64,000 nt of DNA from Maledivibacter sp. (GTDB taxonomy: Bacteria > Bacillota > Clostridia > Peptostreptococcales > Caminicellaceae): the NCBI GenBank assembly GCA_025210375.1, contig JAOASB010000052.1, positions 62,001 through 126,000 on the forward strand, in the 5' to 3' direction. The notes below the pieces were generated by a model that did not search any database, was not told the DNA's origin, and worked only from the letters and a program-made list of their open reading frames with translations. Below, piece by piece: positions 12,393 to 48,002 of this stretch (positions are counted from its first letter, which is position 1; every line of letters begins with the position of its first letter). The translations under genes and the position numbers were made by a program.

Positions 12393-12809
12393 ATGAAGAA
12401 TGTAATGTTAAAGATAAAGGGAACACAAATGCCTACGGGTAGTGACGAAGACAATATAGAGCTTATAACCGAAGGTAAATTTTATGACAAGGACAATGCA
12501 AAGTATATAGTATATGAGGAGTCGGAATTATCCGGAATGGAGGGCTGTACCACTACCCTAAAGATTACAGGTAATAAGGTTGAAATGAAAAGATTTGGCA
12601 AGGCTACATCCCAACTAGTATTTGAAAAGGGGAAAAGATACGTAACCAATTATAGTACACCCTATGGTAATTTCAGGATGGAGATACTTACCAAAAAGCT
12701 TGAGCTAGGAATCAATGAAGATATAAAGGGCAGTATATCCCTGGAATATCAAATAAGCTTACAAGGGCTAGCCGAGGGTACTAATAAGCTGGATATAGAG
12801 ATAATGTGA
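12393..12809 (+). CDS. DUF1934 (YwiB-like) beta-barrel protein
   Basis: A 138-aa protein of the DUF1934 family, a small lipocalin-like beta-barrel of unknown function (B. subtilis YwiB). Typical features are the opening VMLKIKGTQ, YIVYEESELSGMEGCTTTLKI, and the closing beta strands SISLEYQISLQG. No signal peptide. GGAGG lies 8 bases before the ATG. In B. subtilis ywiB stands directly before argS; here the next gene is an ArgRS-like protein, so the old gene order is kept although the partner has changed. Confidence 0.88.
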   Translation: MKNVMLKIKGTQMPTGSDEDNIELITEGKFYDKDNAKYIVYEESELSGMEGCTTTLKITGNKVEMKRFGKATSQLVFEKGKRYVTNYSTPYGNFRMEILTKKLELGINEDIKGSISLEYQISLQGLAEGTNKLDIEIM

Positions 12810-12812
12810 AAA

Positions 12813-12945
12813 AGTTCAAAGTTTTAAGTGGTAAGTTCTAAGATTAGAGTTGAATCTCTTAGGTTTTCAAAAGAACCTAAAGGCTTAGACCCTAACACTT
12901 TGAACTTAGAACTCACAACTTACAACTTACAACTGCCCCCGTGGC
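12813..12945. repeat. AAGTTCTAAG-family inverted repeat
   Basis: Left arm GTTCAAAGTTTTAAGTGG and AAGTTCTAAG; right arm CACTTTGAACTTAGAACTC and ACTTACAACTTACAACT. TCTTAGGTTTTC and AAAAGAACCTAAA form an inner stem. The end CCCCCGTGGCATAG is the right end of the GCCATGGGGACGG element found at 32226 and 37014, here without its left half. Confidence 0.72.
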
Positions 12946-12960
12946 ATAGGGAACGGAGGG

Positions 12961-14136
12961 ATGAAAATCAAACAAAAACTACAAGGTATTTTGGTACAAG
13001 CCATAAAAGAAATAACAGATATATCTTTAAATTCAAAGGATGTAGCCATTAATATTCCAAAGAAAAAAGAACATGGTAATTTTTCTTCAAACATTGCCAT
13101 GAAGCTGTCGGGAAGGGCAAATATGAATCCTAAGGAATTAGGAGAAAATATAAAAAAGTATCTTATGGCTAGAACTGATTTTATTAAGGATATTAGGCTC
13201 ATGGGGCCGGGCTTCCTAAATTTCTATTTAAAAGAAGAAAGCTTTATAAAAGAAAATATCATGGGTGTAGAAAATGGAGATTTTAAAAATTTTAAGCTCA
13301 AAACTAAAAATAAAATTGTAAAGGTAGCCATAGTTCTAAATAAACTTGAGGATATATTTCGCCTTGAAAGTCTTAGGGCATTTATAAACATGTACTATTT
13401 GGGAAACATATATAGCTTTGCAGGATTTAAAGTTAGAAAGCTTGTTGTGGTAAAAAATTATGATGAAGATTTAAACATAAAGTACTTCATATCGAATTTT
13501 AAAGATATAGAAATAGTTTTAAATGAAGAGGAATTAAAGGACAGTATCACCCTTTGTTCTACCTTAGACCAAGGTATATTCAAAGGACTTGATGATAAAA
13601 GATTTATACTTGAAGATGTAAATATATATAAAAATGGATTAAAGCTGAAGGATGTTGCTTTAAGTGGCCTATTGCAGTGGATAGAACTCGATAGGATTAA
13701 ATATACTCTTTGCAGTAAGGCAATAACTAGTGAAATGGATATAGAGCTGACCAAGGATAAATTGAGATATATTCAATATCCATATAGCAGGATAATGTCA
13801 TTGATAAATATTTTTAAAGCCCAAGGAATGGATATAGATGAAGTAAAGGATTTTAACGAAGAACTTTTAACTAATCCCTTGGAATTAGAAATGATAAACA
13901 AAATATCAAGCTTTAAAGATACAATACTTAGTACCATAAGCCAAAATCAACCCTATAAACTCATAAAATACACAAATGAGCTATGCGATATTTTTTATAA
14001 AATAAATTCATCTACACTATATAGAAAATTAAGTAAAGAAAGATTAGTAGCCTTACTAAGGTTATTTAATGTTTTTAAAATAGTTTTAAAGGAAATATTA
14101 GATATATTGGAATTACCCGCTTATGAGAAGATGTAA
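12961..14136 (+). CDS. ArgRS-like protein without catalytic motifs (DALR domain)
   Basis: The 391-aa product aligns by eye with arginyl-tRNA synthetase at both ends. Residues 1-95 resemble the ArgRS N-terminal tRNA-contact domain (HGNFSSNIAMKLSG, MGPGFLNFYL). The last about 140 residues resemble the DALR anticodon-binding domain (YIQYPYSRIMSLINIF). The middle, where ArgRS carries the HIGH and KMSK signatures, is shortened and reads LNKLEDIFRLESLR with no HIGH-like sequence, and no KMSK is visible. Genuine ArgRS is about 550-600 aa. So it probably cannot activate arginine but might bind tRNA. It lies after the YwiB-like gene, the usual argS position. The start is uncertain: GGAGG abuts ATG 12961 with almost no spacing. 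Confidence 0.8.
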   Translation: MKIKQKLQGILVQAIKEITDISLNSKDVAINIPKKKEHGNFSSNIAMKLSGRANMNPKELGENIKKYLMARTDFIKDIRLMGPGFLNFYLKEESFIKENIMGVENGDFKNFKLKTKNKIVKVAIVLNKLEDIFRLESLRAFINMYYLGNIYSFAGFKVRKLVVVKNYDEDLNIKYFISNFKDIEIVLNEEELKDSITLCSTLDQGIFKGLDDKRFILEDVNIYKNGLKLKDVALSGLLQWIELDRIKYTLCSKAITSEMDIELTKDKLRYIQYPYSRIMSLINIFKAQGMDIDEVKDFNEELLTNPLELEMINKISSFKDTILSTISQNQPYKLIKYTNELCDIFYKINSSTLYRKLSKERLVALLRLFNVFKIVLKEILDILELPAYEKM

Positions 14137-14141
14137 GAGTT

Positions 14142-14262
14142 ACAAGCTGTAAGGGGTCATGATCTTATTAGTAGTTCCAAGGGTATAGTTGAATCTCTCA
14201 AGTCTCTAAAGACATAAAAGCATGACCCCAATACTTGGAACATGGAACTGGCAACTAAAAAA
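14142..14262. repeat. AAGTTCTAAG-family inverted repeat
   Basis: Left arm AGTTACAAGCTGTAAGGGGTCATG; right arm CATGACCCCAATACTTGGAAC followed by ATGGAACTGGCAACT. GGGGTCATG and CATGACCCC are exactly complementary. It separates the ArgRS-like gene from the sigma-54 activator. Confidence 0.7.
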
Positions 14263-14348
14263 GCCTCGTCAGACGCCTTTGTTTTAATCTTAGTGACGAA
14301 AATTAGGCACTATCAGCCGAAAAATCAGCATATGTAGGAGGGATGTTT

Positions 14349-15737
14349 ATGGATAATCTATTAAGGGGAAAAAATGTTGATATAATTTTAGATTATGTCA
14401 GCGATGGAATTCAGGTTATAGATAGGAAGGGGAAGATAGTCTATTGTAACAGGATGGCTGCTATTTTGGATGATATCAATAGGGAGGATGTAATTGGAAA
14501 GCATGTATTCAATATCTATCCATCCCTTGAGGAACAGACCAGCACCCTTTTTCGTGTTCTTAGGGTCGGAATTCCTATATATAACGTAGAACAAAGCTTT
14601 ACCAACTATAAGGGAAAGAAGATTACTACTATAAACTCAACTTTGCCCATAAAGCTGAATGGCAAGGTCGTTGGAGCCATAGAAATATCAAGGAACATAA
14701 CGGATGTGAAGGTTTTATCTGAAAAGGTTATAGATCTACAAAATAAGATATATGGTGGTAGGGGTAATGAAGGTGTGAAGGATGATGAGGTAGGATTTTC
14801 CTTTGAGGACATAGTCGGTAATAGCAAAGAACTTCTAAGGATAAAATCCATAGCTGCTAAGGCGGCGGTCACCATGTCACCTATACTTGTCTATGGAGAT
14901 ACGGGGACAGGTAAAGAGCTTTTAGTACAGGCTATACACAATGCAGGGGGAAGAAAGAATAAATCCTTTGTTGCTCAGAACTGTGCCGCATTACCATCAA
15001 ATCTTCTTGAAGGCATATTATTTGGAACCGTTAAAGGAAGCTTTACCGATGCTGCGGATAGACCGGGACTATTTGAACTTGCCCACGGGGGAACATTGTT
15101 TTTGGATGAAATCAACTCAATGCCACTCCAGCTTCAAGCCAAGCTCCTAAGAGTCCTACAGGATGGAAGAATCAGAAGGCTTGGAGATATAAAAACCACC
15201 AAGGTGGATGTTAGAGTTATTGCGGCAACAAATCTTGCACCGGAAATAGCCCTTGAGAAGGGCTTGCTCAGGAAGGACCTATACTATAGGATCAATGCAA
15301 TCACCATAGGAATACCAGATTTGAAGGATAGAAAGGAAGATATCCCTCTTTTAACTGAGCATTTCATAAAAAAGTATAACAAAATATTATATAGAAATAT
15401 AAAGGGAATCTCTGGAGAGGTAGCATCTATATTTCAAAGCTACAACTGGCCCGGCAATATAAGGGAGCTGGAGCATGTCATTGAAGGAGCCATGAATATC
15501 ATAGATGAAGATACGATAACCATGGACTATCTGCCAAAAAAACTAATAGAATTTTATGAGGAAATGAGTATAAATGCTGTGACGGAAGACCTTCCCTTAA
15601 AGGATGCCCTAGAAAATCTTGAAAGAAAAATGATAAAAAATGCCCTCAAAGCCACCGAAAATAACATAAGTCAAGCAGCAGCCCTTCTAGATATACCTAG
15701 ACAAACACTTCAGTATAAGATAAAGAAATATAGTTAA
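14349..15737 (+). CDS. PAS-domain sigma-54-dependent activator of the lysine cluster
   Basis: A 462-aa enhancer-binding protein. An N-terminal PAS domain (about 8-118, VSDGIQVIDRKGKIVYCN) probably senses a small ligand, followed by an AAA+ domain (about 155-390) and a C-terminal Fis-type helix-turn-helix. Walker A is GDTGTGKE at 183-190, Walker B GGTLFLDE, and RELEHVIEG marks the end of the AAA+ domain. The sigma-54 contact loop, normally GAFTGA, reads GSFTDA at 230-235. ATG 14349 has better spacing to GGAGG than ATG 14343. The gene lies upstream of a -24/-12 promoter driving kdd-kam, so control of lysine fermentation is the obvious inference. Confidence 0.92.
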   Translation: MDNLLRGKNVDIILDYVSDGIQVIDRKGKIVYCNRMAAILDDINREDVIGKHVFNIYPSLEEQTSTLFRVLRVGIPIYNVEQSFTNYKGKKITTINSTLPIKLNGKVVGAIEISRNITDVKVLSEKVIDLQNKIYGGRGNEGVKDDEVGFSFEDIVGNSKELLRIKSIAAKAAVTMSPILVYGDTGTGKELLVQAIHNAGGRKNKSFVAQNCAALPSNLLEGILFGTVKGSFTDAADRPGLFELAHGGTLFLDEINSMPLQLQAKLLRVLQDGRIRRLGDIKTTKVDVRVIAATNLAPEIALEKGLLRKDLYYRINAITIGIPDLKDRKEDIPLLTEHFIKKYNKILYRNIKGISGEVASIFQSYNWPGNIRELEHVIEGAMNIIDEDTITMDYLPKKLIEFYEEMSINAVTEDLPLKDALENLERKMIKNALKATENNISQAAALLDIPRQTLQYKIKKYS

Positions 15738-15978: not shown

Positions 15979-16046
15979 GATAAGTAATGATAAAATCTAA
16001 TATAAAACGTTTATTTCAAAAAAATTATCGATGGGGGTATGAAAAG

Positions 16047-17084
16047 ATGAAAAAAGGATGTAAGTTTGGAACACACAGGGTAATTGAACCAAAGGGTACA
16101 TTGCCACAACCAGCATGGAAAATAGACAACGATATGGAAATCTACGACAATGAGATATTGATTAACGTACAGACTCTCAATATCGATTCTGCGAGCTTTA
16201 CTCAAATCAAGGAAAAGGCAGAGGGAAAAGAAGAAAAAATCAAGGAAGTAATGTTGGACATAGTAGGGCAAAGAGGAAAACATCATAATCCTGTAACTGG
16301 TTCCGGCGGTATGCTTATAGGTACTATTGAAAAAATTGGACCAGCTTTAGATGGAAAAACTGATCTCAAAGTAGGAGATAAGATTGCTACCTTGGTTTCT
16401 TTATCCCTTACACCCCTTAGAATTGATAGCATCAAAGAAGTAAGAAAGGATATAGACCAAGTAGATATAGAGGGTAAGGCCATTCTATTTGAAAGCGGTA
16501 TCTATGCTGTAATACCAGATGATATGCCAGAAAATCTTGCATTATCCGTATTGGATGTTGCTGGAGCCCCTGCTCAAACTGCCAAACTAGTGAAGCCTGG
16601 AGATACAGTCCTTGTAATTGGTGGAACTGGGAAATCAGGTATGCTGTGTCTTTACGAAGCTAAGAAAAGAGCAGGAATAACTGGAAAGGTTATTTGTCTT
16701 GGACGTAGTGAAAGAAGCTTAGAAAAAGTTAGAAAAGCAGGTCTTGCAGATGAATATATAATAGCTGATGCAACTAAGGCGGTAGAGGTTATGGAAAAGG
16801 TGGGTGAAGTTACGGATGGACAGATGGCCGATGTAACTATCAACTGTGTAAATATTCCAAATACTGAAATGTCAAGTATACTAGCTACTAAAGACGACGG
16901 ACTTATATATTTCTTTAGTATGGCAACTAGCTTTACTAAGGCTGCCCTTGGAGCAGAAGGCGTAGGAATGGATACAACAATGATAATAGGAAACGGCTAC
17001 ACAAAAGGACACGCAAAAATATCCCTTGAAATAATGAGAGAAAGTAAAGTGCTTAGAGATTTATATGAAGAGCTTTATGCGTAA
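16047..17084 (+). CDS. kdd: L-erythro-3,5-diaminohexanoate dehydrogenase
   Basis: Kdd oxidatively deaminates 3,5-diaminohexanoate to 3-keto-5-aminohexanoate with NAD+, the step after the two aminomutases in lysine fermentation. The 345-aa length matches the family. The N-terminus CKFGTHRVIEPKGTLPQPAWKIDN is characteristic, and a Rossmann nucleotide-binding segment VLVIGGTGKSGMLCLYEAKK lies at about 191-210. ATG 16047 is preceded by GGGGGT with 8-base spacing. It is the first gene after the sigma-54 promoter. The usual neighbours kce and kal do not follow in this window. Confidence 0.93.
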   Translation: MKKGCKFGTHRVIEPKGTLPQPAWKIDNDMEIYDNEILINVQTLNIDSASFTQIKEKAEGKEEKIKEVMLDIVGQRGKHHNPVTGSGGMLIGTIEKIGPALDGKTDLKVGDKIATLVSLSLTPLRIDSIKEVRKDIDQVDIEGKAILFESGIYAVIPDDMPENLALSVLDVAGAPAQTAKLVKPGDTVLVIGGTGKSGMLCLYEAKKRAGITGKVICLGRSERSLEKVRKAGLADEYIIADATKAVEVMEKVGEVTDGQMADVTINCVNIPNTEMSSILATKDDGLIYFFSMATSFTKAALGAEGVGMDTTMIIGNGYTKGHAKISLEIMRESKVLRDLYEELYA

Positions 17085-17094
17085 AAGAGAGTGC

Positions 17095-17345
17095 CAGGTT
17101 CTAAGTGGTAGGTTCTAAGCTTATGGTCAGAGCGACGTCATGGAGACGGTCCGAGGGTCTCACTGGCGTAGCCAGTGACCAACGGGAAGACGATGGAACT
17201 GTCCCCGTGTCAAATGGGAAATTGTGATTTTTTCAGCTATCTCGATGGATCCAAATATCATACTACCCAAGTGCAGTCCAAAAGATTTGACCCTAACACT
17301 TTGAACTTTGAGCTAACAACTAACACAATAGGTTTGACCCTAATA
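17095..17345. repeat. Composite intergenic repeat (kdd-kamA gap)
   Basis: An AAGTTCTAAG-type element (left GGTTCTAAGTGGTAGGTTCTAAG; right CTAACACTTTGAACTTTGAG) encloses a decayed copy of the ACGGTTC palindrome: CATGGAGACGGTCCGAGGG ... GGAACTGTCCCCGTG, with an inner CACTGGCGTAGCCAGTG hairpin. The same nested arrangement recurs at 18716-18798. It separates kdd from kamA without disturbing either ribosome binding site. Confidence 0.78.
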
Positions 17346-17371
17346 CTTAATATATGGGAGCGTGGAGATTG

Positions 17372-18625
17372 ATGAGACATTATTCAGAAATTGAATTGTG
17401 GAAAAATGTTACTGATGAGCAGTGGAATGATTGGCATTGGCAGGTTAGAAACCGTATTTCAAAGGTGGAAGACCTAAAGAAGGTTATTAATATCACACCG
17501 GAAGAAGAAGAGGGGATACATAATGCCCTTAAAACATTGAGAATGGGAATTACGCCCTACTATGCACTTCTAATGGATAAGGATGATCCCCATTGTCCAG
17601 TAAGAATGCAGGCAGTGCCAACATTATATGAAACATATATAAGTGACGCTGACCTAGATGATCCATTACATGAAGACACTGATTCACCTGTTCCTGGTCT
17701 TACCCATAGATATCCCGATAGAGTGTTGTTTCTCATAACAGATATGTGTTCCATGTATTGTAGACACTGTACTAGAAGAAGATTTGCCGGTCAAAAAGAT
17801 GATGAAAGCCCATTAAACAACATAGACAAGGCCATAGAATATATAAGAAATACTCCAGTGGTTAGAGATGTATTACTATCAGGTGGAGACTGTTTATTGG
17901 TATCCGATGAAAGATTAGAATATATCATCAAAAAACTTAGGGAAATACCCCATGTTGAGGTCATAAGACTGGGAACAAGGACTCCCGTGGTTCTTCCACA
18001 AAGAATCACACCTAAACTTGTGGAAATGCTTAAAAAATATCATCCCATTTGGTTAAATATGCACTTTAATCACTCAAAGGAAGTAACCCCAGAGGCAGAA
18101 AAGGCTTGCGAATTGTTGGCAAATGCGGGTATTCCCCTAGGTAATCAATCGGTTCTATTAAGGGGAATAAATGATTGTGTTCATGTAATGAAAAAGCTTA
18201 TGCATGATCTAGTTAAAATGAGAGTAAGACCCTATTATATATATCAATGTGATCTATCGGCGGGAATAGAACACTTTAGAACTCCGGTCTCAAAGGGAAT
18301 AGAAATAATAGAAGGATTAAGGGGACACACATCGGGATATGCAGTACCAACCTTTGTTGTGGATGCTCCCGGTGGCGGTGGTAAAATACCAGTAATGCCG
18401 AATTATTTAATCTCCCAATCACCGGATAAGGTTATACTTAGAAACTACGAAGGCGTTATCACAACATATACTGAACCAAAGGGATACAAAGAAGAGTGTA
18501 CATGTCCTATATGCAAAGGAGAAAAAGAACAGAAAATCACAGGGGTAGCTGGCTTGCTTCAAGGGAATCAACTTGCTCTAGAACCATCAGACCTAGAAAG
18601 ACGTAAAAGAGGACACCATGAGTAA
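17372..18625 (+). CDS. kamA: Lysine 2,3-aminomutase
   Basis: KamA is a radical-SAM, PLP-dependent enzyme that converts L-lysine to L-beta-lysine, the first step of lysine fermentation. The CxxxCxxC iron-sulfur motif is at Cys126, Cys130 and Cys133 (CSMYCRHC), one residue off the well-studied C. subterminale enzyme. The GGD segment of SAM contact is [10 protein letters not shown], and the C-terminal part has [19 protein letters not shown] and a Zn-type CTCPICKG motif. The 417-aa length is normal. ATG 17372 was chosen over ATG 17354, since GGAG precedes it at suitable distance. Confidence 0.96.
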
Positions 18626-40982: not shown

Positions 40983-43754
40983 ATGAAGAAAATTCTTTCA
41001 TTAGTATTAGTACTTTCAATGGTACTTGGAAGCATCGGTTTTGCATTCGCTGCTCCAGCTGACGTTGAAGGTACAGATTATGAAGATGCTGTAACAAGAT
41101 TAGCAGCATTAGAAATCCTATCTGGATTCCCAGATGGAACATTCAGACCAGGAGAAACTGTAACAAGAGCGCAATTTGCAAAAATAATGGTTACTGCACT
41201 TGGAGTTGGTGAAGCTGCAAAATATGCTGCAGGACAAACTCAATTCACTGACGTTGCTGGTGGACACTGGGCAGCAGGATACATCAATGTAGCTTCTGAT
41301 ATGAAGATTATCAATGGTTACGGAGATGGAAACTTCGGTCCAGAAGATCAAGTAACTTATGCACAAGCAGTTACTATGATAGTAAGATCTCTTGGATATG
41401 AGCCAAAAGCTACGGCTATGGGCGGATACCCAGGTGGATACCTTGCTATAGCAGCAGAAAAAGAAATCACTGAAGATATAAACGTAGTAAACACTTTAGC
41501 AGCTATCCGTGGTGATGTTGCTGTAATGGTAGACGCTTCCCTTACTGTACCTATGATGGTTCAAAAAACTTGGGGACAATACCCAGAGTATGAAGAAGAC
41601 GAAGACAAGACTCTTATGACTACAAAGCTTGGAGTTGACGAAATCGAAGGTGTAGTTACAGATGTACCTAACACTGATAGTTCTTTAGAAAAAGATGAAA
41701 TCAAGGTTGGTAGTGACACTTACACTTTAAAAACTGACGTAAAGCTTGACTCACTTCTTGGTTTAGAAGTTACAGTATGGGCTGACGGAGAAGATGTATT
41801 CTTCGTAGACGTTGAAACTGATTCAGACGATATACTATTTGATACAGTAAAAACTGCAGACAAAGATGATGTTACTCTTTATGTTGAAGATGAGACATAT
41901 GACTGGGCTAAAAATGCTAAAGCATATGTAAACTTTGAAGAAGTTAATGTAGATAAGGTTCCAGCCGATGCATATGGTTACGTTGTATTAAATAATGATG
42001 AAGAAGTTGAATTTATAAATGTATTTAAATTTGACGAAGTAGCAGTTGGGGTAGTATACGAAGTAGATGGAGATGTTTACAAATATGTGGACTCAACTGA
42101 TGCAAGCACAGATGAAATAGAATTGTCAGACTACAAAGATGGCGTATTTATTTACAATGAAAAGATGGAATTAGTTGACGCCGAAGATATAGATGTAGAT
42201 AGTGCAATCTTTGCTTGGGAAACTAGCGATGAGTTATACATGATCGTTAAGAACGAAGTAGTAAAAGGCGAACTTGAAAGAATCAAAGATAACGAAATAA
42301 GAGTAGCTGGAACAAGCTATGACTCAGCTTATAATGGAGCTGCTTACTCAGATGATAAATTCGATAACTTTGGTGCATATAATGATGTTGCTGACTTAGA
42401 TAATCTTGGCGACGAAAAAGTAAATGTAGTATTAGACCTTAATGGTGAAACATTATTAGTATATGGTGATGCTAAGACTACTAGCTCTACTATGTATGGT
42501 GTTGTAACTTATGGAGATACTACTTCAAAATCAAAGGCAACTGTATTCAATAAAGATGGGGAAGAAATAGACTACAAATTTGAAACAAGAGCTGACGGAA
42601 CTGACCTTGATGGACTTGGATACTTTGAAATTAAAGATACTAACAATGGAAACAAAGACTTAAGCTTTGCAATAATGGAATTCAAGCTTAACTCAGATGG
42701 CGAAATCGCAGATGGTGAAGCTACTATCGATACTATAACTTATGCTTCTGATGCTGTACCAGCTGGTACAGGTAACTTAACAAAATCTGCAGATAAAAAC
42801 TATGTAGATGTTAGTGGTACTAAGTACTATATCTCTAAGGATACAGTATTTATGACAGTGGTAAACAATGACGGAGAATTAGATCCAGAAGTTGTTAAAT
42901 ACGAAGATATCTATAAGAGTGCAATTGCTTCAAACGAAGTACACGTATACGGAACTTCAAGCAAGGATGCCGACATGATAGTATTCTTAGATCCTACATT
43001 CGTGGGTGCTGATGATGATTACTACTATGGTGTTGTAAAAGATAATCCTTGGAAAGATGGAAGCGACTATGTAGTTGAGATCGATGTATTTGGTGAAGGT
43101 GAAAAAGAATATACAGTAAAAACTAAAAGTGACTTTACAGAAGGAAAAGTAGTTAAATTCCACTTCAATAGTGATAATGAAATAGTAAGAGACGCATTAG
43201 GAACAGAAGATGCTGATGGTACTTTCGATTATGACGATGGATATTTAACATCAACTGATGATGGAACAGTTAAGATTTCTTCTAAAGCCGTAGTATACGA
43301 GCTTGACTCAGATGGTGAGATTGATGAAAAAGTAAGTGTATCTAAAGTAGATGACAGCAACTTCAAGACTTTAGTTTACATCCTTGATGAAGACGGTATT
43401 GTTGTAGCTGCTACAGTAGAAGAAGAAGGAACTACACAATCTACAAGTGCTAAAGCTACTATCACAGCAGACGCTATACTAGATGCTCCAACAGATGCTG
43501 TTAATGTTAAATTAACATTAGGTACTGGAGAAGCAGTTGGTGAATACAAATTAATGGTTTACAAGTCAACTGGGTTTGTTTCATCAGCAGCTATAACAAC
43601 TGATGTTGATACAGATGCAAATGGTGAAGATTTTGAAGCAAATTCAGATTTATCACTGGCTGATAACACTGAGTACACAATAAAAGTAGTTAAAATGGCA
43701 GACGGTACAGTATTGACAGAAAAAGTTGTAACAACTCTTGATGTTACACCATAA
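40983..43754 (+). CDS. S-layer-like protein with N-terminal SLH domains (923 aa)
   Basis: Exported, very acidic protein. A signal peptide (MKKILSLVLVLSMVLGS..., cleaved about residue 24 after AFA) is followed by three SLH domains (about 28-200: ILSGFPDGTFRPGETVTRAQ; INGYGDGNFGPEDQVTYAQA; a third, weaker unit at about 150-195). A long beta-rich region rich in Asp, Glu and Val follows. Codons and the GGAGG ribosome binding site suggest strong expression. A promoter and long leader precede it, and a terminator follows, so it is a single-gene unit. It is a likely paralogue of the next gene. Main S-layer or an accessory layer protein are both possible. Confidence 0.9.
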   Translation: MKKILSLVLVLSMVLGSIGFAFAAPADVEGTDYEDAVTRLAALEILSGFPDGTFRPGETVTRAQFAKIMVTALGVGEAAKYAAGQTQFTDVAGGHWAAGYINVASDMKIINGYGDGNFGPEDQVTYAQAVTMIVRSLGYEPKATAMGGYPGGYLAIAAEKEITEDINVVNTLAAIRGDVAVMVDASLTVPMMVQKTWGQYPEYEEDEDKTLMTTKLGVDEIEGVVTDVPNTDSSLEKDEIKVGSDTYTLKTDVKLDSLLGLEVTVWADGEDVFFVDVETDSDDILFDTVKTADKDDVTLYVEDETYDWAKNAKAYVNFEEVNVDKVPADAYGYVVLNNDEEVEFINVFKFDEVAVGVVYEVDGDVYKYVDSTDASTDEIELSDYKDGVFIYNEKMELVDAEDIDVDSAIFAWETSDELYMIVKNEVVKGELERIKDNEIRVAGTSYDSAYNGAAYSDDKFDNFGAYNDVADLDNLGDEKVNVVLDLNGETLLVYGDAKTTSSTMYGVVTYGDTTSKSKATVFNKDGEEIDYKFETRADGTDLDGLGYFEIKDTNNGNKDLSFAIMEFKLNSDGEIADGEATIDTITYASDAVPAGTGNLTKSADKNYVDVSGTKYYISKDTVFMTVVNNDGELDPEVVKYEDIYKSAIASNEVHVYGTSSKDADMIVFLDPTFVGADDDYYYGVVKDNPWKDGSDYVVEIDVFGEGEKEYTVKTKSDFTEGKVVKFHFNSDNEIVRDALGTEDADGTFDYDDGYLTSTDDGTVKISSKAVVYELDSDGEIDEKVSVSKVDDSNFKTLVYILDEDGIVVAATVEEEGTTQSTSAKATITADAILDAPTDAVNVKLTLGTGEAVGEYKLMVYKSTGFVSSAAITTDVDTDANGEDFEANSDLSLADNTEYTIKVVKMADGTVLTEKVVTTLDVTP

Positions 43755-43776
43755 TAAAATTTAATATGATATAAGT

Positions 43777-43814
43777 GATCCCTAGGAGGAATGCACCTTC
43801 TAGGGATTTTCTTT
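43777..43814 (+). terminator. Terminator after the first S-layer-like gene
   Basis: GATCCCTAGGAGG pairs with CCTTCTAGGGAT around a short loop, followed by TTTTCTTTT. Confidence 0.85.
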
Positions 43815-43926
43815 TATTTACATAAAACTGTAACAAAACCCACTTGCAACCCCCCTATATAAAGCCCTAAATGTCCTTGAAATACTAGTGAAAAGAACAT
43901 GTAATAATATTGTAATATAAATCACA

Positions 43927-43956
43927 TTGACTTGGAAAAAAGAATTATGGTATCAT
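43927..43956 (+). promoter_or_regulatory. Sigma-A promoter of the second S-layer-like gene
   Basis: TTGACT (43927-43932), an 18-base spacer and TATCAT (43951-43956). The start near 43963 would give a leader of about 250 bases. Confidence 0.7.
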
Positions 43957-43961
43957 ATCGT

Positions 43962-44038
43962 TAGTGATTAATGAAATAAATTCCTGTATAGGATAAATAA
44001 TCACTAGCAGGTTTATGTTACTTAGTAGGTTACATAAA
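43962..44038 (+). promoter_or_regulatory. Two hairpins at the 5' end of the S-layer leader
   Basis: TAGTGATTA (43962-43970) pairs with TAATCACTA (43998-44006) and encloses CCT-GTAT-AGG. TTTATGTTAC (44012-44021) pairs with GTTACATAAA (44029-44038) with one mismatch. The first lies right at the predicted transcript start, where a stem can protect mRNA from decay. This is the main content of the gap 43755-44216; the rest up to the ribosome binding site shows no clear signal. Confidence 0.6.
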
Positions 44039-44216
44039 CACACAAGCTTTTTTAAAGCCCTTTATATTATGGTGTTAGAACGTGGATTTGATTTTATATC
44101 TTTTCCACTTCTATAGATTTAACCCAGTTTATCCTTGATGGGTAGGATGAATAGGGTTGGTACATAAAAACCCCATCACAAAAATAAAGAACAAAATAAA
44201 AGGAGGAAATTTGAAC

Positions 44217-47200
44217 ATGAAAAAGATACTTTCATTAGTATTAGTACTTTCATTAGTACTAGGTTCAATGAGTATGGCTTTCGCTGCGGCGCCTTCATTC
44301 TCAGATGTTGAAAATGAAGACGTATTAAAGGCAGTGAAAAGACTAAATGCTTTCGGAATCGTAGATGGATATGACGACGGTTCTTACAAGCCAGAAAAAA
44401 ATATTACAAGAGCGGAATTTTCAAAGTTGCTAATTACTGCATTAGGACTTGAAAATGCTGCAAATGCTGCAAGTGGAATTAGTCACTTTGGTGATGTTAC
44501 AGGTGGTGAGTGGTTTGCAGGTGCTGTAAACGTAGCTGCAGGTCAAGGTATAGTAAAAGGATACGCTGATGGAACTTACAGACCAAATGCAGAGGTTAAA
44601 TACTCTGAAGCTGTTACTATGATAGTAAGAGCATTGGGATACAAAGATGAGTTCCTACCTGGAAAATGGCCAGGAAACTTTATTGCTAAAGCAGCTGACG
44701 CTGGAGTAACTGATGATGTTACTTTCCAACCAGATGGTATTGCTAATAGAGGATCTGTAGCAATAATGTTAAATAATGCATTAGATGCTAAAATGGTAAA
44801 GGTTAGTTCTTATAATAAAGATATCTTTAATGCTGATAGTGATGGAATTCACTATATTTTAACTGATGTTACATTATTACAAGATAAGCTTGATATCGAC
44901 AAATATGAATCAATCGAATTAACTGGGACACCTAAGGTTGATAATGGGTTAGATTCAGATCAAGTTGCATTCAGAGAAACTGACGATTCCAAAATGAATG
45001 GTGAAGATGAAGACGAATTTAATTTACCTTCAAAATTCGATGTTGAAGATGCAGATATGTTAAACGTATTAGAAACTCGTTTAGGTGAATCATTAAACGT
45101 TTATGTTGATGACGATGAAGTTGTATTCTTTGAAACTGCAGACAACGCTTATACTGTTAAGTGGGGTACTGTTAAAAAAGGTGATATTGATAAAGAAAAA
45201 AATGAAATCACAGTAACATTTGTTGATGGAGACGACAAAGATTATGATTACGAAGATTCAGGAAAATCTGAGATAAAGATTTATATTGATAACGAAGAGA
45301 AAGACGAAGATGATGTAAAAGACGACCTATTTGGTAAGTTTGTTATTGCTGATAATGGGGACGTTTCAGTAGCTGATTTACATGATTGGGACGATGAAGC
45401 TTTAATCGTTACTGAATCAAAGGCTGATGAGTTTGACTATATTGCAGCGGCTGATTCACATAAGACATTTGAAGCTGATGACTTTGATAAGGTAGTAGTA
45501 ATGAATACTGCTGGTGAAGTTATGAATATGGAAGATCTTGAAAAAGATACTGTTGTATATATCAATGAAGCTGAGCTTGCTGAAAGTGGCGATGATGTAG
45601 CTTATGTTGTAGCCGTTGAAACACCTGCTGTAATTGAAACAGCTGATGATTTTGACATTGATGATGATGACAAAGAGCAAGAATTTAAGACAGAAGAAAG
45701 TGGTACTTACGACATCAATGATTCTTATGGTACTGTATCTGCTGATGAAGATGACGACATCGTAGATTTTGAAAGCGCTCGTGACGAGTTAGAAAGTATT
45801 ACTGGTAAAGATGCAAAAGTTAAGATCTTATTTGATATAGTTAAAGATATTAGACACATTAGTACAGATGTAGATGTATCTTCAACTAACCTATATGGGG
45901 TTATATTAGGTACAGATGATGATAATTTCGATAGTGATGAAATACAAGTTAAAATATTAACTTCTACAGAAGACAAAGTTGTTTACGATATCGATTTTGA
46001 TAGTGACGATTTCTACAACTTTACTGATAAAGCTTTCTATGGAACTGCTCCAGCTGCAAAAGACTTTACTGAAGCTAATTTAAAAGATTTAATAGAAGGT
46101 TTAATTGTTAAGTACACATTAAATAGTGATGGCGAAATAGATTCTATGGTAGTAATAAACCAAGATAAAGAAGATGATGATACAAATGCTAGCACTGATG
46201 AAATTAAAGGTGATGATGAATTAGAAGCAAATGAAGCAAACAATGTTGATGACAGTGATGTTATAATTGCTTCAGGTAAGTTAAAAGAAGATATTGAAAA
46301 AGATTCAATTGAATTTAGTTCAACTGATTTTGAAGGTGGAAAAGATGGAGTAAAAGACTTCACAGTAGCATCAGATGTTATAGTATTTGATGTAACAGGA
46401 GAAGATGCTGACGATATGGATTCTATTAAGTACGAGAACCTAATCGGTAATGGTGAAAATAAACAAATATTAGTTGTGGCTAATGACGACGAAGAAGTTG
46501 AATTAGTAGTTGTAACAAACGAAGTAGCTTCTGACACTGAGTATGTTGGTTACCTATTAGAAACTCGTGAGATAGATGATGAGCATTACTTTGAAATGGC
46601 AGTATATGGTGAAGATAAAATTAAGAAATACGAAATTGATACTAGTACTGTAAATGAAAATAAAATTGCAGAGGAATCAATGGTAGTATACAATGTAAAA
46701 TCTGATGATACAATCAAGATTATCGGGGCTTCTGATAAAGACGCTGGTCAATCACTTCCAGATACTTCTGACTTTGAATTTGTTGTAGGTCAAGTTGTGG
46801 ATGTTGACGGAGACTGGTTAAAGATTGATACAGACGCTGATAAAACTTATAACGACAAAGTTAAATTATACAGTGATACACTTGTATATGAAGAAGATTC
46901 AGATGATGCAGATGTAGATGAATATGATTTTGTATTAGTTGCTAAAGATGGTACAAAAGCAAGAGTAGTTAAGCGTTATGACATTGATTTCGAAGATTAT
47001 GATGAAAATGGATCTGAAGAAGAAATGTTTGAAGAAGATCTTAAAGAAAATGAAGGAACTACCGATATAAGTGGATTTGTCTTTGGTGAAGGTGAAAAAC
47101 CAGAAAATAGCAATAGTGAAGAATCATCAGCTTATATTGTTGATCATACTTATGCTAGTGGAACATATAAAAGATTAAAAACAACAGATGCTAATGAAAA

Positions 47201-48002
47201 AGTAGTTTACTTATCATTCTCAGACTTCACAACATTTAAGTTTGGTGAAACTGAATTACCGAAAGAAGCAGTAGTTGCTTGGATGATTGCGGAAAGTTCT
47301 AACTTTGTTGTAAATGTTGATGGTAAGACAATGATAGTAAAAGATAAGGATACTGAAGAAGCAGCAGCTAAAGATTTATTAGCAGCACAAAAAGCTCTTG
47401 ACTTTAATGAAATTAAAGATTCAAACACAAAAGCTACAGAAGTGAAAGCCAACTTAAGTTTACCTGCAGATGCTAGTGGATTTAGTCCAGCAATTGCTGG
47501 GATAGCATTTGCTTGGGAAAGTAGTGATAATACAGCAGTAAATAAAACAAATGGTAATGTAACTAGACCTGATGCAGGAAAGGCTGATGTGAATGTTACT
47601 TTAACTGCCAAAATTAAAAAAGCTGATATTGAATTAACAAAAGATATTGAAGTAAAAGTATTAGCAAAAGACTTCTCTGCAGAAGCTGGTAGTCTTTCTA
47701 CAAGAGCTGTAGATATTACATTAACATTAGATGGATATGCAAACGGTGATTTTACAGTTTCAGACTTTGATATGGATGGTTTAGGAAATGATTCAGTTAC
47801 ATTTAACGGTGTTACTTACACAGTAACTTACAGTTCAGGAGTTTACACAGTAACTGCAACTTCAACAACTGGAGCAGCGGCAGAAGCTAAGACTGTAACA
47901 TTATCATTGACTGAAGATGACAAAACAATCGAATTTGATTTAGATATTCAAAAAGCAAATGCAGGTGGTGAAAACGGTGATTTCACGATTACTGTAAAGT
48001 AA
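44217..48002 (+). CDS. S-layer-like protein with N-terminal SLH domains (1261 aa)
   Basis: Exported, extremely acidic protein. The signal peptide (MKKILSLVLVLSLVLGSMSM) is nearly the same as in the preceding gene. Three SLH domains occupy about 27-195 (GIVDGYDDGSYKPEKNITRA; GIVKGYADGTYRPNAEVKYS; GVTDDVTFQPDGIANRGS). A long acidic beta-rich region with many Asp/Glu runs follows, then an immunoglobulin-like domain near 1060-1150 (AFAWESSDNTAVNKTNGNVT) and a C-terminal beta domain. ATG 44217 follows GGAGG by 9 bases. Single-gene unit with its own promoter, structured leader and terminator; probably an abundant wall protein. Confidence 0.9.
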   Translation: MKKILSLVLVLSLVLGSMSMAFAAAPSFSDVENEDVLKAVKRLNAFGIVDGYDDGSYKPEKNITRAEFSKLLITALGLENAANAASGISHFGDVTGGEWFAGAVNVAAGQGIVKGYADGTYRPNAEVKYSEAVTMIVRALGYKDEFLPGKWPGNFIAKAADAGVTDDVTFQPDGIANRGSVAIMLNNALDAKMVKVSSYNKDIFNADSDGIHYILTDVTLLQDKLDIDKYESIELTGTPKVDNGLDSDQVAFRETDDSKMNGEDEDEFNLPSKFDVEDADMLNVLETRLGESLNVYVDDDEVVFFETADNAYTVKWGTVKKGDIDKEKNEITVTFVDGDDKDYDYEDSGKSEIKIYIDNEEKDEDDVKDDLFGKFVIADNGDVSVADLHDWDDEALIVTESKADEFDYIAAADSHKTFEADDFDKVVVMNTAGEVMNMEDLEKDTVVYINEAELAESGDDVAYVVAVETPAVIETADDFDIDDDDKEQEFKTEESGTYDINDSYGTVSADEDDDIVDFESARDELESITGKDAKVKILFDIVKDIRHISTDVDVSSTNLYGVILGTDDDNFDSDEIQVKILTSTEDKVVYDIDFDSDDFYNFTDKAFYGTAPAAKDFTEANLKDLIEGLIVKYTLNSDGEIDSMVVINQDKEDDDTNASTDEIKGDDELEANEANNVDDSDVIIASGKLKEDIEKDSIEFSSTDFEGGKDGVKDFTVASDVIVFDVTGEDADDMDSIKYENLIGNGENKQILVVANDDEEVELVVVTNEVASDTEYVGYLLETREIDDEHYFEMAVYGEDKIKKYEIDTSTVNENKIAEESMVVYNVKSDDTIKIIGASDKDAGQSLPDTSDFEFVVGQVVDVDGDWLKIDTDADKTYNDKVKLYSDTLVYEEDSDDADVDEYDFVLVAKDGTKARVVKRYDIDFEDYDENGSEEEMFEEDLKENEGTTDISGFVFGEGEKPENSNSEESSAYIVDHTYASGTYKRLKTTDANEKVVYLSFSDFTTFKFGETELPKEAVVAWMIAESSNFVVNVDGKTMIVKDKDTEEAAAKDLLAAQKALDFNEIKDSNTKATEVKANLSLPADASGFSPAIAGIAFAWESSDNTAVNKTNGNVTRPDAGKADVNVTLTAKIKKADIELTKDIEVKVLAKDFSAEAGSLSTRAVDITLTLDGYANGDFTVSDFDMDGLGNDSVTFNGVTYTVTYSSGVYTVTATSTTGAAAEAKTVTLSLTEDDKTIEFDLDIQKANAGGENGDFTITVK

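What the first reader, a model, noticed from the sequence alone, without database searches (positions are those of the whole stretch)
12961..14136. ArgRS-derived protein without the aminoacylation core
The gene occupies the argS position after the YwiB-like gene and keeps ArgRS-like N-terminal and DALR anticodon-binding regions, but is about 160-200 residues short and shows no HIGH or KMSK motif. Losing catalysis while both tRNA-contact domains stay intact in an undisturbed frame suggests a new role, such as tRNA-Arg binding, regulation or modification.
Basis: partly seen in the sequence, partly recalled or inferred. Interest (0 to 1): 0.7.

Follow-up and report, generated by a model that had tools for sequence, protein, structure and literature searches.

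The report
Retired synthetase reused without its catalyst
The gene is best read as the old arginine-tRNA-charging enzyme of these bacteria, displaced by a second enzyme, stripped of its active site and kept in at least 23 genomes as a probable tRNA-binding protein; in its own bacterial family it appears to start from rare non-AUG codons that would keep its level low.

Summary
Window 12961-14136 encodes 391 aa with an ArgRS N-terminal domain (aa 6-90) and a DALR domain (aa 271-391). There is no catalytic-domain match; HIGH reads RLES and the KMSK loop is deleted. A full argS lies elsewhere in the genome.

New here: (1) It is a conserved family: 23 of 247 genomes of the order, four families, open frames of 234-450 codons, directly after ywiB wherever checked. 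(2) In other orders of the class the best-matching full argS genes occupy that same ywiB slot (27/27 loci) and resemble it more than its own argS does; the working argS of its relatives is another type, not ywiB-linked. So it is best read as the displaced ancestral argS, repurposed. (3) The residual Rossmann segment is as constrained as the flanks in the window's family; f11 and f3 lost it. (4) The tRNA-elbow (A20) asparagine is invariant, but a universal DALR tyrosine is lost in 12 of 13, beside a new invariant R-x-L. (5) In all five genomes of the window's family the codon 7-9 nt after the Shine-Dalgarno core is AUC, AUU or AUA, as in infC; three lack any usual start codon nearby.

tRNA-Arg binding is likely; the downstream role is inferred.

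The parts
12393..12809 (+). ywiB (DUF1934), the constant upstream neighbour of the family and of ancestral-type argS
   Evidence: Pfam DUF1934 E 1.3e-39; synteny
12955..12960 (+). Shine-Dalgarno sequence GGAGGG
   Evidence: core 7 nt before ATC 12967 but 1 nt before ATG 12961; 17 of 26 window genes with a strong site have spacing 6-9
12967..12969 (+). probable non-AUG start codon ATC (aligned ATT/ATC/ATA/ATA in the other four genomes of the family)
   Evidence: infC control
12976..13230 (+). ArgRS N-terminal (tRNA-elbow) domain, aa 6-90
   Evidence: Pfam PF03485 E 4.5e-19
13219..13221 (+). Asn87, counterpart of E. coli ArgRS N84 that recognises A20; invariant in 13 family members
   Evidence: E. 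coli contacts from PMC8975779
13276..13752 (+). middle segment aa 106-264, shrunken Rossmann remnant, catalytically dead
13360..13371 (+). RLES, at the place of the HIGH motif
   Evidence: alignment
13771..14133 (+). DALR anticodon-binding domain, aa 271-391, with the ArgRS-type C-terminal Met
   Evidence: Pfam PF05746 E 4.3e-14
14023..14031 (+). R355-K-L357, family-specific R-x-L motif invariant in 13 members and not in ArgRS

Best explanation
The gene is best read as the ancestral ywiB-linked arginyl-tRNA synthetase of this lineage, displaced as the working enzyme by a second, differently built ArgRS and then repurposed. Shown by computation: the catalytic motifs are gone, the frame is conserved as a family in the old slot, and the A20-binding asparagine and the DALR fold are kept. 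Inferred: the protein binds tRNA-Arg (elbow A20 plus anticodon arm) without charging it, and acts as a low-abundance tRNA-Arg adaptor or modulator, for example presenting selected isoacceptors to another enzyme as human DALRD3 does, or holding uncharged tRNA-Arg. In the window's family translation most likely starts at AUC/AUU/AUA, which would restrict its synthesis and make it sensitive to IF3. Rough probabilities: displaced-argS origin 0.9; tRNA-Arg binding 0.7; non-AUG start in this family 0.85; adaptor for another enzyme 0.3; tRNA-level regulator or chaperone 0.35.
For: Domains without catalytic core. Family in 23 of 247 genomes of the order, always after ywiB where checked. 27/27 best-matching full argS loci of other orders sit in the same ywiB slot. 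All 13 members score higher with the ywiB-linked ArgRS profile than with the order's own ArgRS profile (window protein 170 vs 94 bits). A full argS of the other type in the own genome and in 20 of 22 other carriers; the two without are draft assemblies of 85% and 90% completeness. Members form one clade, support 100. Substitutions fall most at codon position 3 and least at 2 in all three regions. A20-contact Asn invariant and A20 in all seven tRNA-Arg genes read. ArgRS fold by AlphaFold and Foldseek. Start-codon pattern in 5/5 genomes with infC as control.
Against: No binding or expression data. A tree grouping with the order's own argS is not rejected (AU p 0.30). The universal DALR Tyr is lost in 12 of 13 members, so the anticodon contact may be gone. 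In f3 the DALR domain falls below Pfam detection. Several families of the order lack the gene, so it is dispensable. The putative start codon also encodes an Ile that is conserved in f12, which starts upstream at ATG.
Confidence: 0.68

Rival explanations
1. A slowly decaying pseudogene of the displaced argS with no present function.
For: Fast divergence (48-56% identity within the family, where ywiB keeps 68-82%), progressive shortening, loss from several families.
Against: Open frames in all carriers whose locus is complete, across four families; codon-position pattern of purifying selection in all three regions; new invariant motif; conserved strong Shine-Dalgarno sequence.
Confidence: 0.08
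2. A regulator that binds RNA other than tRNA-Arg (an mRNA or tRNA-like leader), using the remodelled DALR domain.
For: Loss of the universal DALR tyrosine together with a new motif; a non-AUG start suits a low-abundance regulator, as reported for ccpN (PMC13009471).
Against: The A20-specific asparagine is invariant and the genome's tRNA-Arg genes read have A20; no Rfam element was found in the window.
Confidence: 0.12
3. An accessory subunit that pairs with the working ArgRS or another protein through the Rossmann remnant, with tRNA contact secondary (like HisZ with HisG).
For: The catalytically dead middle segment is as conserved as the flanks in f1, including NMYYLGN; aaRS-derived regulatory subunits are known (HisZ, PMC9437257).
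Against: f11 and f3 members lack the segment entirely; no conserved downstream partner gene: only ywiB is shared by all loci.
Confidence: 0.12
4. A recent duplicate of the genome's own argS that inserted after ywiB.
For: The AU test does not reject grouping with the order's argS (p 0.30).
Against: Slot shared with ancestral-type argS in 27/27 loci; profile scores favour the other type by 22-89 bits for all members; the order's own argS form a separate clade, support 99.
Confidence: 0.05

Closest known systems
Arginyl-tRNA synthetase, ywiB-linked type (HMGN / MSKRTG motifs)
   Same: N-terminal and DALR domains, slot after ywiB, highest profile scores, C-terminal Met
   Different: No HIGH or KMSK, no connective insertion, about 175 residues shorter or more; universal DALR Tyr lost; R-x-L motif gained
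Human DALRD3 (METTL2 partner; PMC7237682)
   Same: A DALR-domain protein without a synthetase catalytic motif; a non-charging tRNA-Arg binder is the working hypothesis here
   Different: Vertebrate-only, DALRD3 origin uncertain, partner methyltransferase known; no partner is known here
NrtL, ArgS-related anticodon-binding protein (NCBIfam NF045898)
   Same: ArgRS-related, about 330 aa, no full catalytic domain by its length and name
   Different: Members here score 30-67 bits against a cut-off of 340, mostly over the N-terminal domain; no publication was found
HisZ (HisRS paralog)
   Same: Synthetase-derived protein without charging activity in bacteria
   Different: Class II, different pathway, known partner HisG
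Genes with conserved non-AUG starts: infC, ccpN, cvfC1 (PMC13009471)
   Same: AUU/AUA start behind a strong Shine-Dalgarno sequence, conserved between species
   Different: Here a synthetase-derived gene; the codon varies among AUU, AUC and AUA; use not shown experimentally

Membership tests
Arginyl-tRNA synthetase (argS, TIGR00456) | Whole-protein score over the curated cut-off 261.65 bits | tested here: not met
   89.3 bits
Arginyl-tRNA synthetase (argS, TIGR00456) | Class I catalytic domain with HIGH and KMSK-type motifs | tested here: not met
   No tRNA-synt_1d match; HIGH reads RLES, KMSK loop deleted
Arginyl-tRNA synthetase (argS, TIGR00456) | Arg_tRNA_synt_N and DALR_1 domains | tested here: met
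   E 4.5e-19 and 4.3e-14
NrtL (NF045898) | Score over the curated cut-off 340 bits | tested here: not met
   44.8 bits for the window protein; 30-67 bits for eight relatives
DALRD3-like tRNA-Arg adaptor | DALR domain without a catalytic motif | tested here: met
DALRD3-like tRNA-Arg adaptor | Binds selected tRNA-Arg and recruits a modifying enzyme | not testable with these tools
   Needs biochemistry; no linked modifying enzyme seen
Genes with infC-type non-AUG start codons | AUU/AUC/AUA at normal spacing after a strong Shine-Dalgarno sequence, conserved across genera | tested here: met
   5/5 genomes of family f1, spacing 7-9 nt; infC control
Genes with infC-type non-AUG start codons | No usable AUG/GUG/UUG start nearby | tested here: inconclusive
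   Met in G001, G003 and G004; the window has an ATG two codons upstream, G002 has in-frame GTG and ATG upstream
Genes with infC-type non-AUG start codons | Initiation at that codon observed in vivo | not testable with these tools
   Needs ribosome profiling or N-terminal proteomics

The most novel reading that the evidence does not exclude
A bacterial counterpart of DALRD3: after displacement by a second ArgRS, the old synthetase became a non-catalytic tRNA-Arg adaptor with altered isoacceptor choice, progressively cut down to about 230 aa, and in one family its level is set by IF3 through a conserved AUU/AUC/AUA start codon.
Probability: 0.25. Interest if true: 0.85.

Novelty: new variant of a known kind. 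Interest (0 to 1): 0.62.

Why it matters
It offers a visible series (full enzyme, dead Rossmann remnant, bare tRNA-contact domains) in one syntenic slot for how an essential synthetase is retired and reused. It gives a testable bacterial case of a tRNA-Arg-binding protein without catalysis. It would also add a translation-related gene, beside infC, whose start codon is apparently kept at non-AUG codons across several genera.

Tried and rejected
Pseudogene: rejected on conservation and substitution pattern. Recent duplicate of the genome's own argS: disfavoured by slot and profile scores, though the AU test does not exclude it. Membership of NrtL: far below cut-off. Replacement of the core by an unrelated domain: disfavoured, since the top Foldseek hits of the middle segment are class I synthetases, albeit weak (E 0.016), and its HIGH region aligns with ywiB-linked ArgRS in mini G001; sequence searches with the segment alone found nothing significant. 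RNA element in the window: none in Rfam. Genome-contig scans: the first found no relative, the second returned mainly full-length argS and no named carrier. Papers on ywiB with argS, or on NrtL as an ArgRS relative: none found in this library.

Full report
Observation. The frame at 12961-14136 encodes 391 aa with Arg_tRNA_synt_N at aa 6-90 and DALR_1 at aa 271-391 and no class I catalytic domain. In alignment with full ArgRS the HIGH region reads RLES, the connective insertion and the KMSK loop are missing, and most catalytic residues are lost. Of positions identical in at least 85% of 65 full ArgRS, the window's family keeps about 71% in the N-domain (7.8 of 11), 57% in DALR (8.6 of 15) and 19% in the catalytic part (7.4 of 39). 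A complete argS lies on another contig.

It is a family. A profile search finds it in 23 of 247 genomes of the order, in four families (a 24th match, G034, is a full argS). These are all five genomes of the window's own family f1 (open frames 388-410), f12 (450, plus one cut by a contig end), f11 (244-275) and part of f3 (234-249). At every locus examined it follows ywiB. In f11 and f3 the middle segment is gone and the N-domain joins DALR through a short linker. A 183-aa frame after ywiB in G037 (family f2) keeps two family motifs and may be a further remnant, on weak evidence. Of 22 genomes chosen without the gene, 19 keep ywiB, followed by other genes.

Origin. The best-scoring full argS of other orders in the class (27 loci) all have ywiB just upstream, and those whose motifs were printed carry HMGN and MSKRTG. 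The order's working argS carries HIGH and TRKG-type motifs and is not ywiB-linked, including in carriers of the gene. A full argS is present in the own genome and in 20 of 22 other carriers; the two without it are drafts of 85% and 90% completeness. All 13 members tested score higher with the ywiB-linked profile. Members are one clade (support 100) and the order's argS another (99). The tree alone does not reject grouping members with the order's argS (AU p 0.30), and several member branches are long, so synteny and profile scores carry the argument. The simplest account is displacement by a second ArgRS followed by reuse of the resident copy.

Structure. AlphaFold of the whole protein (pLDDT 79, pTM 0.70) gives 20 PDB matches at E<=0.001, all ArgRS. 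The middle segment alone (pLDDT 73) gives only weak matches, led by ArgRS and CysRS (E 0.016-0.018), which fits a shrunken Rossmann fold. Within f1 this segment is as conserved as the flanks (22% invariant, against 23% and 24%), so it probably has a function there, although f11 does without it.

tRNA contacts. E. coli ArgRS N84 and F82 hold A20 (PMC8975779). They correspond to N87 and F85: N is invariant in 13 members, and F is F in 11, H in one and Y in one. The seven tRNA-Arg genes read in this genome (anticodons UCU x4, ACG, UCG, CCU) all have A20. In DALR, a Tyr found in all 42 ArgRS of both types compared is replaced in 12 of 13 members, and R355 and L357 are new and invariant. Binding to the elbow of tRNA-Arg is therefore likely, while anticodon reading is probably changed. 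This is inference, not a measurement.

Start codon. In the window the ATG at 12961 lies 1 nt from the GGAGG core, whereas 17 of 26 window genes with a strong site lie at 6-9 nt; ATC at 12967 lies at 7 nt. At the aligned position G003 has ATT, G002 ATC, G001 ATA and G004 ATA, at 9, 8, 9 and 9 nt. G003 has a stop two codons before its ATT and its first ATG is 45 codons on, inside the N-domain; G001 and G004 first meet TTG or GTG 20 and 29 codons on. By the same criterion infC starts at ATT in the genomes where it could be read (seven of eight). Members in other families have ordinary starts. Conserved AUU and AUA starts that cut reporter expression to about a tenth are described for cvfC1 and ccpN in S. 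aureus (PMC13009471). Caveats: the codon matches an Ile that f12 keeps although f12 starts upstream at ATG, and the window and G002 have upstream alternatives.

Verdict. A real, conserved, apparently non-catalytic ArgRS derivative in the ancestral argS slot. The closest functional analogue is DALRD3 (PMC7237682); the NCBI family NrtL is related in kind, but its model is not met. The role needs biochemistry.

Noticed in passing
window 12813-12934, 14173-14210, 17279-17348: Intergenic inverted and direct repeats (38-nt arms, 79% complementary at 12813-12934) with words such as TTTGAACTTAGAACTC; similar words lie between ywiB and the gene in G003, suggesting a dispersed hairpin repeat.
   Followed up: partly
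window 14343-15737: Sigma-54-type regulator whose first ATG (14343) is 1 nt from its Shine-Dalgarno core; an ATG two codons downstream fits better.
   Followed up: no
window 15987-18625: Lysine-fermentation genes (3,5-diaminohexanoate dehydrogenase, lysine 2,3-aminomutase) follow the locus in f1 and f11 in the same order.
   Followed up: no
L227, L228 (G387, G343): Two f11 genomes carry a further full-length ArgRS of another kind (HVGHL, about 596 aa, only 372-376 bits with the order's ArgRS profile) beside the usual one.
   Followed up: no
L200:1899-2450 (G037): A 183-aa frame directly after ywiB with GHLNF and YRKFSKEKL, possibly an extreme remnant of the same gene.
   Followed up: partly
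window 40983-48002: Two very large neighbouring frames (923 and 1281 aa) with similar secretion-type N-termini, resembling surface-layer proteins by eye.
   Followed up: no
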